Source: Neopestalotiopsis rosae
Taxonomy: Eukaryota; Ascomycota; Sordariomycetes; Amphisphaeriales; Sporocadaceae
Assembly (NCBI GenBank): GCA_023078685.1
Contig: JALGAS010000005.1
Span: 2,542,001 to 2,606,000, forward strand
DNA length: 64,000 nt
Direction: 5' to 3'
Position numbers and translations under genes: made by a program. Every line of letters starts with the position of its first letter. Position 1 is the first letter of the stretch. This document shows positions 994 through 46,400 of the stretch, in pieces. A model generated the notes under the pieces. That model was not told where the DNA came from. It worked only from the letters and a program-made list of their open reading frames with translations, and made no database searches.

Positions 994-1065
994 GCGCTTA
1001 TAGTGTAGCGGTTATCATTCTTGCCTTCCAAGCATGAGACTCGGGTTCGACTCCCGATGGGCGCA
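994..1065 (+). tRNA. tRNA-Gly (anticodon UCC)
   Basis: A 72-nt cloverleaf can be folded by eye. The 7-bp acceptor stem pairs GCGCTTA with TGGGCGC (with G-U pairs), followed by discriminator A at 1065. The anticodon loop CTTCCAA spans 1025-1031 with anticodon TCC at 1027-1029; its 5-bp stem contains one T-T mismatch. The T arm is a perfect TCGGG/CCCGA stem around a TTCGACT loop. No intron is present. Anticodon UCC reads GGA/GGG glycine codons. A short T run downstream (1068-1070) may serve as the RNA polymerase III terminator. Confidence 0.95.
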
Positions 1066-41806: not shown

Positions 41807-42131
41807 CTAGTAGTGAAGTCTTAATCGCTTGCTACTACTGGCGGCCATGTCTCTCTTTCTTTTCAAAGATGAGACTGATGTTACAATTGTTTGGTTGGTT
41901 TCTTCTTGAGGAACAGTCGATCCGGTTTTGTCGGGGGCCGGCTGAGAGTCTATAGTCGACTCTCTAGCTTTCATTTTTCGTTCTTCTGTTCTGATTGCCC
42001 ACAGTAGTGTGAGCAATACTTCTCGAGACGGTAAGCTGGTGCCTTCTGGCCACAATAGCGTGCCACGGCCCTGATCTCCCTTGATACCCAGGAGTCTATC
42101 TTCCAGCCCCTCGACCCGGTCATCGTGTCCC
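41807..42131 (-). other. hacA: Unspliced-form-only 3' coding extension of hacA
   Basis: If the 20-nt intron is retained, the original frame stays open to a stop at 41807 (total 525 aa). This 325-bp part is coding only in the unspliced form and becomes 3' UTR in the spliced form. It encodes a basic/hydroxyl-rich tail ending in SLKRKRDMAASSSKRLRLHY-like sequence (a Lys/Arg cluster). Confidence 0.75.
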
Positions 42132-43441
42132 TCAGATACCAACCGCAATAGGCCCAGCGTCGCATCCTTTAGAGGACGCGCCAGCATGGGACTGCAGGTT
42201 AAGATTTTCTGAAGAGACTTGAGTCTCAGAGTCAAAGAGGTTGAGAGTAGGCTCGGCTTCGAAGGAGACCGAGGCGTGTCCCGCGATCGCGCCTGAAGCT
42301 GCGCCGCTGAGATCGTCGTCAAGATATTGTGAGAAGATGTCGAATTCCGGAAGTTCTGCGGAAGCGTGACCATCCAAATTACTGTACTCAAAATTGAAGG
42401 GGTCGCTTGAAGGACTAAATTGTGCTTCAGCGCTCCAGCTATCAGTAGGATTGAGTTCTGACAGGCTGAAAGCATCGCTGAAGAGGCCATCAAAGCCATC
42501 TGAAGTTGTAGGAACAGCGCTAGCGCCGGTTGTGGGCTCTGCTGAGCTACCAGAGACTCTGGCACCTCCGTTGACGGACACTGCAGGTCGCACAACACCG
42601 CTGCTGGATGTTGTGTCGCGTCAGGGGAGGTGGTCAGGGCCTTGGTAGCCGAGGGAGCTGCGCTAGTGGCGGGCTTGGAAATGGCTTCATCAGAAACAGG
42701 AGTAAGTTCAGGAGAAAGAGAAGCGGGGTCGACGGTGCCCTCGTTATCGGGCATCAGGATGAAGTCGTTCATCATGCTGGGTTTCGTCTCGCTGACCTCC
42801 GAGGCCGGGAAGAGGGGTTGCGACAAGGTGACGGGGCCCTCGAGGTCAAGCAGAGGAGATGTGCTGCTTGTGACACCCGTGCGTCGCATGTTGTTGATCT
42901 CTTCCATCAGCCTCGCCGTCTGCTTCCTGTGCGAGTCCAGGAGAGCCTCAAGCTCCTTGTTACGCTTCTCCAAAGCCTCAACTTCTTGTCGCTTGCGCTC
43001 ACGAGAGGACTGGGCAGCACGGCGGTTACGAAGGACACGCTCGACTCGTCGTTGCTCCTTTTCATCCTCTGTCTTGGCACGTTTCCTATTGAGTGGGGTT
43101 AGATCAAGGTACAAAAGTGGGTCAGGATTCAATGTTGCTTACCTGGGAGGCAGGTTTGTCTTGGGCTCTGGAAGGACTTGTCCCCATGACTTCCTCTTCT
43201 TGGTAGTTTTCTTCTCTGAGTCGCCTTCAGGGGTCTCGGCGACCTCCTCCTCCTTCACGTCGTCATCGAGGGACTGAGGGGTCATAACGTCCTCAACCGG
43301 GCCCATGCTTGTCGGGGCTGGTGTGCTGAAGAGCGAGTACATGTCGGCAGAGGGGTCGGAGATAAAGGACTCGGCGGGCGAGTTCTCGAACTTGACCTGC
43401 GGCGTCGAGGCCGGGGTGTGTTCTGACCAAGAGCTCATCAT
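42132..43441 (-). CDS. hacA: HacA/Hac1 bZIP regulator of the unfolded protein response (spliced, active form)
   Basis: Complement of join 42132-42580, 42601-43085 and 43143-43441, 410 aa in the Ire1-spliced form. The first intron (43086-43142) is a normal GT-AG intron; the second gap is the 20-nt unconventional intron. Residues 1-99 are acidic with a KKRKSWGQVLPEPKTNLPPRKR stretch (written here as two adjoining parts), the conserved Hac1 entry into the bZIP. The basic region contains N120, A123, A124, Q125, S127 and R128, followed by a leucine zipper of several heptads. Splicing adds a new acidic, Asp/Ser/Phe-rich C-terminus (about 150 aa), the likely activation domain. Without splicing the frame continues to 41807 and gives a 525-aa form. 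Known function: Ire1 splicing during ER stress activates chaperone and secretion genes. No upstream ATG lies within about 245 nt of the start. Confidence 0.93.
42584..42603 (-). promoter_or_regulatory. hacA: Ire1-type 20-nt unconventional intron of hacA
   Basis: On the minus strand the 5' site CAG^CAGC sits in a 7-nt loop (CAGCAGC) closed by a 9-bp stem, CACAACATC with GGTGTTGTG (one T-G pair). The 3' site CTG^CAGT sits in a second 7-nt loop (CTGCAGT) closed by GAC/GTC and, after a 3x3 internal loop, GTTG/CAAC. Both fit the CNG^CAG consensus cut by Ire1. Because CAG occurs at both ends, removing 42584-42603 or 42581-42600 gives the same mRNA. Excision of 20 nt shifts the frame into the 42132-42593 ORF. 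Confidence 0.92.
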
Positions 43442-46400
43442 TTTGTGTGGTTTGTAGTCTAGGAGGACTTGTGTGGTGGTGGTATGTGTTGCAAACTTGC
43501 TGCAGCAAAAAGTCCAAGCAAAAGAGAGAGTGATCCGCGAATCGAACCTCTTGTCTCTTTGCTCAAATCGTTTGGTGGAGTAATGAGAATGCAGCAAAAG
43601 AATACCGGTGGGTATCTGCTGAAGTAGAGAGGTGCCGTCCTAGTTCCTCAATACAAATACCGCTGGTGGGTTTTCACGTATGGCGGTGCATCCTTCCCAT
43701 GGACTGAGTGAGTCACCTGATATGAGTCAAGGTTATGGTAGTATGATGGCAGACTGGCAGGCAGCGGCGATTCTGGGGCTCAAGGACAAGTGTCCTTTGT
43801 CTGCTTGGCGAGTTGGGTGGTGGCTCTCGTGCTTCAAGCCTCGTCGATTCGAGGGCGAACAGGCCGCCTTTATCTAGAGGACACGTTGATGGAGGGCAGG
43901 AGCTCGAAACTGGTTGCCTCAGGCAGAAAGGGGGCCGCTAGAGACAATAAGAACCTAGATTGGGAGGGAAGCAAGGGTGGGAAGGGGGTCGCAGAAGGTG
44001 TCGAGCCACACAAGAGGAGAGACAGGGAAAGGGAGCAGAGACAGGACCCAGTGCCAGCGTCGTATGAACTCTACCTAGACAAGGTACGTATCGTATCGCG
44101 CCAAGATGGGCATGTCTCTTGGTTTCCTCTTGGCTTTGGCTTGGTACTCTTGGTACTGTGTAGGCAGGCGACTGGGCTACAGGAAGACTCGCACAAGGAA
44201 GGAATGTTCAGGGGGGCCCCCCGGGTCGTATTGATTGGCGGGATCTGACGGGAGGACGGACCCCAAGGAGGAACGCAAGAACGCTCCAACGGACCGCGAA
44301 GAGGCAAGTGGAGTCAAAAGTCAGCGCAAGCCCAGCAAGCCAGCAGCGCCAGCCCCTGGCCCCAAGGGCCCCTCGGGCCCAGCCCATGCCAACTCTGATG
44401 TCGCTTGGACGTAACTTGTGGACGACGACTGCCCGCAAAACGCCCCTCGCTCGTGCATCGACATTGCGTGCCCGTTTACTCTAGACGAGAAGAAGCCCAT
44501 GATGAATGAATAACGAATCCACATAACAATTGCACTGCCCACCGCGCATAACCCGCCGGAGCCGTGATTGCGATTCTAGCAGCACTGTGGTCCATCTAGG
44601 TATCTTCAGTGCCAAAAAGTGCCTGCCTACAATTTAAAGATTCATCAAACCGCCAGCTGCATGGCTCAACTCTCCCAGCAGTCCGTCTGCCGTGAGCGGG
44701 CGCTGAACTGAAGCATGTTCCAGCTGGTCCGGGTAGCCAGTGCTGCTACTGTCAAGGTATCTTGGCGAGGAGGCGCCCCACCAGGCTTCAGACTTCAGCC
44801 GTCCTTGGGGCGGTACAAAGGCTAAAAGCACGCATTTCGAGACACAACGTGCGAGCCTCTTTTTGCCTCTATAGGGGCTGGCACCTTTCGACTGCCTCTC
44901 AAGCTGTTGAATCTCCAAAATGTCAGGCGAGATCCTTCCCGACAACCAACAAGGTTCAGGCACGTCATTACTTTGAGTTCAGTCATAAATGTCAAAGGCA
45001 GATGGATGTTTCTGGCGATGCGGTTCATTCCTGATAATGATACCATCATGCTGTCAAAGGCTGTCAGTTGGAAATAACAATATGAATCCTATTTTACTTG
45101 GCAGCCTAAATAGAGAAGACATTGGAAACCCATGGGTGGATTTGCATTAATGGGCTCGTCAGGTCCGTTGGCGTACTCCCAGAATACATACGCGTTCCTG
45201 CGGCGCTGCTGTGCTTGCTAATACGCACTAACCTGAAAAGCCGGACTGTGTCGCTAAACATAGCACATCCGGACCTCAGCCAATGTGCCGACGAGCATAA
45301 GATCTCATCATCCACAATTATTGTCAGATCAGCTCTCATCAGCCCCCGTCAGCGACGTTTCTCATAATGTCATCATTGCAGGATAGGCTGCATTAATCTG
45401 AGGTGACGATAGCCAACCAAATAATGCTGGTATCATCCTCGAGAAATCCATGTTGGGCTGTAATACTCGAGCAGAGACATCTTGAGCGACACAGCAGACA
45501 GGTCTCAAAGCCCTCTCTCTCTGCGTACAGTGCCTGCGTACGGTATCCGTCGAAATGGTGGCTCCCTCGAATTCGCCTGCCTAGGTGCTCATTACGCTGT
45601 AATTGCTTGCCATTTCTCCAATTCTGAGTCGCCTAGAGTGGTTTGTCAATATGGAAGTTTAACAGTCCGGAGATTGACTAAGCCAGAGAGAATGTGCTGG
45701 TATCAACCACCAGCTGTCCGGTGGCAATAATTGAGGACTCGCATCTCAATAATTGGACTGGGGACAAAAGAGAGTGTGTGTGTGTTGCGTATGCGGTCGC
45801 ACCCAATGCGGTAATACGGATCGATATAATACTTTCTTGTATTCGCAATCAAAATTTCATGTGCGCCCCAAACATAGCCAGATAGCCGAGTCGGCTTGCG
45901 CTGCAATGTCACCTCCATCCCCGGCTGGGGACTCCCGAGCCCGCCGCTCCTGAAGAATATTTTGTCATGTGCCTGAATATTGGCCTGCAGGAAAATCTGG
46001 AGAATTGATTCTTGTCCATGCAATACACTTCTTTATTCATGTCTAGATTCCTAGGAAGTAGGAGCTGATAAATCAAGGTTGGCCGAAGGAACAATACATC
46101 CTGCAGGCATCATCACCTAGAGGAAGAGACTGTGAGGAGGATCATTATAGTGGTAGGCTTGGAAGACTTGGTAGGCTTTGGTAGGGCGAACGGCGCCGAT
46201 CATGTCGAGTATGGGGAAAATTGGCAGGGTTCCGGACCACCAACATGGAATGCTGGATTGGCTTCACGTCAAGGCTCCTGTCATAAAATGCTCGCATGAA
46301 CCTCAGACATCTATATTTGAGAGGCGGAAGGATTATCATGAACTCAATTCTATGTCATTCAGATTTTTCTTTTCTTCATTAGAATTCTGTCGCCTCGGAA

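What the first reader, a model, noticed from the sequence alone, without database searches (positions are those of the whole stretch)
42560..42625. Textbook-complete Ire1 splice element in hacA, including a 9-bp/7-nt hairpin
The 5' site forms a fully paired 9-bp stem around the 7-nt loop CAGCAGC, and the 3' site a second 7-nt loop CTGCAGT. The intron is 20 nt. CAG at both ends makes the exact cut formally ambiguous by 3 nt, while the Ire1 consensus selects 42584-42603. This gives a direct prediction of the stress-induced mRNA.
Basis: partly seen in the sequence, partly recalled or inferred. Interest (0 to 1): 0.75.

Follow-up and report, generated by a model that had tools for sequence, protein, structure and literature searches.

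The report
Ire1 splice element in fungal hacA
This is the known stress-sensing RNA splice switch of a fungal hacA gene, found here in a Pestalotiopsis-like mould, and its "off" reading frame looks like a conserved protein in its own right rather than a by-product.

Summary
On the minus strand, 42632-42563 matches the Hac1/Xbp1 non-canonical intron family RF04247 (57.5 bits, cut-off 41). It is the only match found in the 53.8-Mb assembly. The gene is a bZIP hacA/HAC1 with a 57-nt GT-AG intron and the predicted 20-nt Ire1 intron 42603-42584. Unspliced it reads 525 aa, spliced 410 aa. An Ire1-type kinase-RNase ORF and a tRNA-ligase domain are in the genome. Proteins from relatives show both the exact 20-nt-removed junction and the unspliced form. 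The same switch is experimentally described in Verticillium and Aspergillus.

Corrections: five cut registers give the same mRNA, a 4-nt span, not 3. The 3' hairpin is only 3 bp and is not predicted to form. An enclosing 7+5-bp stem was missed.

Beyond the finding: the unspliced C-terminus is as conserved as the bZIP-bearing half (97 homologues, medians 63% and 61%) and continues into a 108-aa tail (53%) beyond the spliced stop. In 6 of 6 chosen pairs it is better conserved than the spliced frame. HacAu is probably a selected protein.

The parts
43143..43441 (-). hacA coding exon 1 (ATG at 43441)
   Evidence: homologues collinear
43086..43142 (-). conventional 57-nt GT-AG intron
   Evidence: GTAAGC...AATAG, in-frame stop inside; 9 of 13 spliced contig proteins of relatives read the motif PPRKRAKTED across this place
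42604..43085 (-). exon 2, bZIP domain (residues about 108-167), up to the 5' Ire1 cut
   Evidence: Pfam bZIP_2 8.9e-07
42563..42632 (-). whole Hac1/Xbp1 non-canonical intron element, RF04247
   Evidence: 57.5 bits, gathering 41; only match found in the genome
42591..42615 (-). 5' hairpin, 9 bp (one U-G), loop CAG|CAGC
42577..42589 (-). 3' hairpin, 3 bp, loop CTG|CAGT
   Evidence: pair probabilities 0.01 or less, isolated hairpin does not fold
42584..42603 (-). predicted 20-nt Ire1 intron CAGCGGTGTTGTGCGACCTG
   Evidence: CNG|CNGN at both ends; five equivalent registers
42626..42632 (-). 5' arm of enclosing stem, pairs with 42563-42569; a further 5 bp 42619-42623 with 42572-42576
   Evidence: (probabilities 0.96-1.0)
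42132..42583 (-). post-splice coding sequence of induced HacA (410 aa in all), overlapping the unspliced frame
41807..42604 (-). C-terminal part of the unspliced frame, HacAu residues 261-525 and stop
41807..42131 (-). HacAu-only tail downstream of the spliced stop (about residues 418-525)
   Evidence: no stop in this frame, 5 in each of the other two; 16 of 5000 shuffles open; median identity 53% in 97 homologues
43674..43700 (-). possible short upstream ORF (8 codons, 259 nt before the start); transcript start unknown
   Evidence: sequence only

Best explanation
The element is the Ire1 target of the fungal unfolded-protein response. Without stress the mRNA, with only its conventional intron removed, reads a 525-aa HacAu. 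Under ER stress Ire1 cuts both 7-nt loops (CAG|CAGC and CTG|CAGT) and tRNA ligase joins the ends, removing 20 nt. The frame then shifts after residue 260 to give the 410-aa activator HacAi. The sequence, the family match, the genes of the pathway and the conserved products are shown. Cutting and joining in this species are inferred from relatives. In addition, the unspliced frame is itself under selection, most simply as a translated protein.
For: RF04247 at 57.5 bits, one match found in the genome. Removing 20 nt opens a C-terminus with homologues over the full query, for example P0003 at 79% identity and 100% coverage. 22 of the 263 proteins retrieved carry the exact spliced junction by pattern. 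13 of these 22 come only from contig sources (lgn, jgi), and 9 of those 13 also carry the intact motif across the conventional intron, so they look like cDNA (inference). P0012, equal to P0003 at 219 of the first 220 aligned positions, is unspliced. Ire1-type ORF with Pkinase 2.9e-35 and Ribonuc_2-5A 2.1e-38 (first hit); tRNA-ligase domain PF08302 5e-82. Same anatomy in V. dahliae: 20 nt, 526 and 417 aa, cDNA-verified, only the spliced form found under DTT (PMC8071499, passages).
Against: No RNA reads of this organism. The twin-hairpin fold lies 3.5 kcal/mol above the predicted minimum and the 3' stem is 3 bp. Six database gene models of close relatives (P0001, P0002, P0004, P0005, P0006, P0007) use other junctions, of three kinds, which I read as gene-finder artefacts, not as alternative splicing. 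4 of the 13 spliced contig proteins lack the exact motif across the conventional intron. The PF08302 match has two stops inside, probably an intron, not checked.
Confidence: 0.97

Rival explanations
1. The spliced frame is the only selected product; the unspliced frame is open and similar among relatives merely as a shadow of the activator frame.
For: Openness of the overlap is not surprising: 797 of 5000 synonymous redraws of the spliced frame are also open (799 of 5000 permutations), and the hydrophobic peak is reached in 473 of 5000 and 1686 of 5000. Hac1u-HA was not seen on an immunoblot in V. dahliae, and that fungus is viable with only the spliced form (PMC8071499, passages).
Against: The unspliced frame is better conserved than the spliced one in 6 of 6 pairs that I chose. 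Simulation under spliced-only constraint reached the observed unspliced identity in 0 of 100 runs in 22 of 24 settings; the two exceptions (23 and 5 of 100) are at no constraint at all. Inferred changes fall most often on the unspliced frame's third position in 4 of 4 informative pairs. The tail outside the spliced ORF is conserved.
Confidence: 0.06
2. The overlap and tail are conserved as RNA (for example an mRNA-targeting or stability element), not as protein.
For: Two of the most conserved blocks (residues 401-410 and 411-420; 54-row alignment) lie at the spliced stop, and yeast HAC1 mRNA is known to carry a 3'UTR targeting element (recalled; Aragon 2009 seen only in reference lists). No DNA of relatives was available to exclude this.
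Against: Conservation is recovered by protein scoring, E 1e-78 to 3e-40 for the listed hits other than the query itself. 97 of 183 proteins aligned cover at least 70% of the tail; the rest were not sorted in full, but include spliced-form and partial models. Parts of the segment are predicted as confident helices.
Confidence: 0.15
3. The hairpins are a chance resemblance and the frame change is produced by a spliceosomal intron nearby, as several database models have it.
For: Six predicted proteins of close relatives use other junctions; a 9-bp stem on a CNGCNGN loop occurs in 3 of 20 shuffles.
Against: Those six models use three different junction kinds; 13 proteins from contig sources carry the exact 20-nt junction; none of the 17 registers printed around the intron starts with GT and ends with AG; RF04247 match.
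Confidence: 0.02

Closest known systems
Verticillium dahliae HAC1 (PMC8071499, passages read)
   Same: 53-nt conventional plus 20-nt Ire1 intron, predicted twin stem-loop, 526-aa unspliced and 417-aa spliced products with a shared N-terminal 268 aa
   Different: Splicing shown by cDNA there, only predicted here; conventional intron 57 nt here
Aspergillus fumigatus hacA (PMC2606855, PMC7580959 and review PMC10781871, passages)
   Same: 20-nt intron, frame switch to a shorter product, repeat-caused ambiguity of the cut; overlapping frames and functions of hacAu discussed
   Different: HacAu 433 aa and HacAi 342 aa; flanks CTGCAG on both sides, here CAGCAG and CTGCAG
Neurospora crassa hac-1 (PMC4488935, passages)
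   Same: Ire1 intron with frame change to a shorter protein, twin hairpin
   Different: 23-nt intron, asymmetrically flanked; its lowest-energy fold shows the twin hairpin, ours does not
Metazoan XBP1 (recalled; cited)
   Same: Overlapping reading frames after Ire1 splicing, unspliced product with its own function
   Different: 26-nt intron; in XBP1 the unspliced protein is the shorter one, here it is the longer (recalled)

Membership tests
RF04247, Hac1/Xbp1 non-canonical intron | score above the curated gathering cut-off, full model length | tested here: met
   57.5 against 41 bits, model 1-72 of 72
RF04247, Hac1/Xbp1 non-canonical intron | two 7-nt loops with CNG|CNGN cut sites | tested here: met
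   CAG|CAGC and CTG|CAGT
RF04247, Hac1/Xbp1 non-canonical intron | both loops closed by stable stems | tested here: inconclusive
   9 bp at the 5' site, 3 bp at the 3' site; the isolated 3' hairpin does not fold in ViennaRNA
fungal HAC1/hacA | bZIP protein upstream of the intron | tested here: met
   bZIP_2 8.9e-07; several homologues named HAC1
fungal HAC1/hacA | splicing changes the frame into a conserved C-terminus | tested here: met
   410 aa against 525 aa; P0003, P0015, P0023 and others end in a GCDxGxxAVG-like motif
fungal HAC1/hacA | Ire1 and tRNA ligase in the genome | tested here: met
   PF06479 6.7e-38 with a Pkinase domain in the same ORF; PF08302 5e-82, two stops inside the match
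fungal HAC1/hacA | 20 nt removed from the mRNA on ER stress | not testable with these tools
   no reads of this organism; relatives only (PMC8071499)

The most novel reading that the evidence does not exclude
In Sordariomycetes the 'uninduced' HacAu is a selected, partly folded protein. Its alternative-frame C-terminus (residues 261-525), with one confident helix straddling the position of the spliced stop codon and another beyond it, is constrained more strongly than the activator frame it overlaps. The Ire1 switch would then exchange one functional C-terminal domain for another, not turn a dead ORF into a live one.
Probability: 0.6. Interest if true: 0.6.

Novelty: new member of a known kind. 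Interest (0 to 1): 0.35.

Why it matters
The splice element itself adds one more species to a well-known switch and lets the stress-induced mRNA be annotated correctly; six database gene models of close relatives miss this junction. The side result matters more. Functions of unspliced hacA or cib1 have been proposed in A. fumigatus (PMC7580959) and U. maydis (PMC6988420). A conserved HacAu C-terminus, with a tail outside the spliced ORF, gives a clean target for testing them.

Tried and rejected
Hydrophobic segment of HacAu (residues 287-305, mean hydropathy 1.67) as an ER-targeting signal like that of XBP1u: the same peak is expected from recoding the spliced frame (473 of 5000 and 1686 of 5000), so it is not claimed. 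Openness of the overlap as evidence of dual coding: rejected for the same reason (797 and 799 of 5000 open).

Unspliced-only selection as the sole force: contradicted at strong constraint (0 of 100 in 6 of 6 pairs at 0.05, and in 5 of 6 at 0.15, the other 7 of 100). It is not contradicted at weak constraint (0.4: 6, 97, 4, 53, 47, 17 of 100; 1.0: 75-100 of 100 in every pair). I therefore cannot say from these data how much the spliced frame adds.

Structure: the AlphaFold2 model of residues 261-525 has mean pLDDT 65 and pTM 0.50. Helices 139-163 and 194-220 of the segment are at about 83-92 in their ten-residue blocks; 87 of 265 residues are below 50. Foldseek against PDB found 54 matches at E 10 or better and none at 0.001. 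Pfam none for the segment up to E 5. The one PDB sequence hit, 6iak_A, covers profile positions 118-205, which I take to be the bZIP part from the position alone.

5'UTR pairing with the intron: duplexfold gave -43.3 kcal/mol but I ran no control, so nothing is claimed. The sR5 snoRNA match is below its cut-off and treated as chance. One search printed wrongly decoded counts of violated constraints; one search recounts them, with the same change counts. Papers: search listings (two returned no paper); passages only, never whole texts, of PMC8071499, PMC4488935, PMC7580959, PMC6988420, PMC10781871, PMC2606855. PMC3225973 (Hooks and Griffiths-Jones) is not held.

Full report
Observation. Read on the minus strand, the stretch holds CACAACATC-CAGCAGC-GGTGTTGTG (42615-42591) and GAC-CTGCAGT-GTC (42589-42577), so both loops have 7 nt and fit CNG|CNGN. 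Shifting the excision by -1, +1, +2 or +3 gives the same mRNA, so five registers are equivalent. A hairpin of this kind alone is not rare (9 bp in 3 of 20 shuffled windows). The pair of sites, with stems of at least 5 and 3 bp at 10-40 nt spacing, occurs once in the window, both strands searched; the pair was not searched in the shuffles.

Family. Rfam's Hac1/Xbp1 intron model RF04247 matches 42632-42563 over its full length with 57.5 bits (cut-off 41), and a genome search found one match in 53.8 Mb (73 of 3503 first-look candidates scored).

Folding caveat. ViennaRNA prefers another fold of the 81-nt stretch (-31.9 against -28.4 kcal/mol for the twin hairpin). It gives the enclosing stem 0.96-1.0, the nine 5' pairs 0.02-0.56, and the three 3' pairs 0.01 or less. 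The Rfam match, not the folding energy, carries the structural case.

Gene. The coding sequence starts at 43441, has a 57-nt GT-AG intron (43142-43086), and reads 525 aa unspliced (stop ending at 41807) or 410 aa after removal of the 20 nt (stop ending at 42132). Both have a bZIP domain. The best named homologue is from Neopestalotiopsis sp. 37M, so the host is probably Neopestalotiopsis or a near genus; the window's origin is not given. The genome also holds an ORF with protein-kinase and Ribonuc_2-5A domains, as in Ire1, and a tRNA-ligase domain whose match has two stops inside.

Evidence for splicing in relatives. Among the 263 proteins retrieved, a pattern search found 22 with the exact spliced junction and 148 with the unspliced reading at that place. 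The 148 include gene models such as P0001 that leave the frame further on. A differently worded pattern on the first 183 gave 30 spliced-like, 122 unspliced-like and 31 unclassified, with gene-finder junctions among the 30. Of the 22, 13 come only from contig sources (lgn or jgi), and 9 of these 13 read the intact motif across the conventional intron. P0003 (spliced) and P0012 (unspliced) match at 219 of the first 220 aligned positions. Six gene models of close relatives (P0001, P0002, P0004-P0007) show other junctions, of three kinds. Experiment: V. dahliae HAC1 loses 20 nt and switches from 526 to 417 aa (PMC8071499); A. fumigatus hacA loses 20 nt (PMC2606855); N. crassa 23 nt (PMC4488935).

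The unspliced frame. A search with residues 261-525 of HacAu found 244 proteins, and one with the Verticillium C-terminus found 284; in each, the best 120 were listed. The names listed include Xylaria, Hypoxylon, Colletotrichum, Verticillium, Trichoderma, Claviceps, Chaetomium, Podospora and Lomentospora, all Sordariomycetes (class recalled). Two rows bear labels that are not of a fungus (P0188 under Photinus pyralis, P0194 from a transcriptome set); I take them as contamination and did not check. Of the 183 proteins aligned one by one, 119 cover the overlap segment and 97 cover the three parts (over 80%, 80% and 70%). These 97 have median identity 61% (residues 1-260), 63% (261-417, overlapping the spliced ORF) and 53% (418-525, beyond the spliced stop). 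In a 54-row alignment (the window's segment and 53 proteins that I chose from the 263), the most conserved ten-residue blocks are 401-410 (0.94), 451-460 (0.90), 331-340 (0.86) and 411-420 (0.83); the last 55 residues are poorly conserved (blocks of 0.30-0.53).

Which frame is constrained. I chose six spliced/unspliced pairs. Two (Colletotrichum, Verticillium) mix sister species and one (P0003/P0012) is unnamed. Identities to the window in the overlap, spliced against unspliced, are 82/85, 68/85, 51/60, 50/64, 37/52 and 35/46. A simulation with constraint on the spliced frame only never reached the unspliced identity (0 of 100) in 22 of 24 settings; the exceptions are two pairs with no constraint, 23 and 5 of 100. 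The opposite simulation is rejected at strong constraint but not at weak constraint. DNA inferred from the two proteins of a pair has its changes most often on the unspliced third position: 19 of 36, 31 of 58, 35 of 89 and 53 of 104, in four pairs with 1, 0, 4 and 3 of 271 constraints violated. A fifth pair had two changes, neither there, with 5 violated, and was uninformative. Real DNA of relatives was not available, so this remains indirect.

Limits of the HacAu claim. Openness of the overlap and its hydrophobic peak are expected by chance given the spliced protein; openness of the tail is not (16 of 5000 shuffles). A predicted model of the segment has confident helices only in part (mean pLDDT 65) and no structural match. 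One of these helices (about residues 399-423) straddles the place of the spliced stop, the other (454-480) lies beyond it. Tagged Hac1u was not detected in V. dahliae, and that fungus lives without the unspliced form. Roles for unspliced hacA or cib1 have been proposed, and PMC7580959 states that overlapping frames occur in all species homologues. I saw no paper reporting conservation of the fungal HacAu C-terminus in the listings of searches (two returned nothing); the library lacks most subscription journals.

Verdict. The element is real and correctly interpreted, and it is a new member of a known kind. The unexpected part lies mostly outside the stated coordinates: the unspliced frame looks like a selected protein.

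Noticed in passing
window 41807-42604 (-): HacAu C-terminus conserved across Sordariomycetes, with a tail beyond the spliced stop; described in the report.
   Followed up: partly
window 42563-42632 (-): The predicted lowest-energy fold extends the enclosing stem and would compete with both cleavage hairpins; could be an artefact of the energy model or a closed state.
   Followed up: no
window 43442-44441 (-): Four upstream ATGs in the 1000 nt before hacA, opening short ORFs of 59, 12, 8 and (nested) 5 codons; upstream ORFs in hacA leaders have been discussed in other fungi. Transcript start unknown.
   Followed up: no
window 994-1065 (+): tRNA gene, 59 bits.
   Followed up: no
P0001, P0002, P0004, P0005, P0006, P0007: Database gene models of relatives carry three different kinds of junction at the Ire1 intron, probably forced GT-AG introns.
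   Followed up: partly
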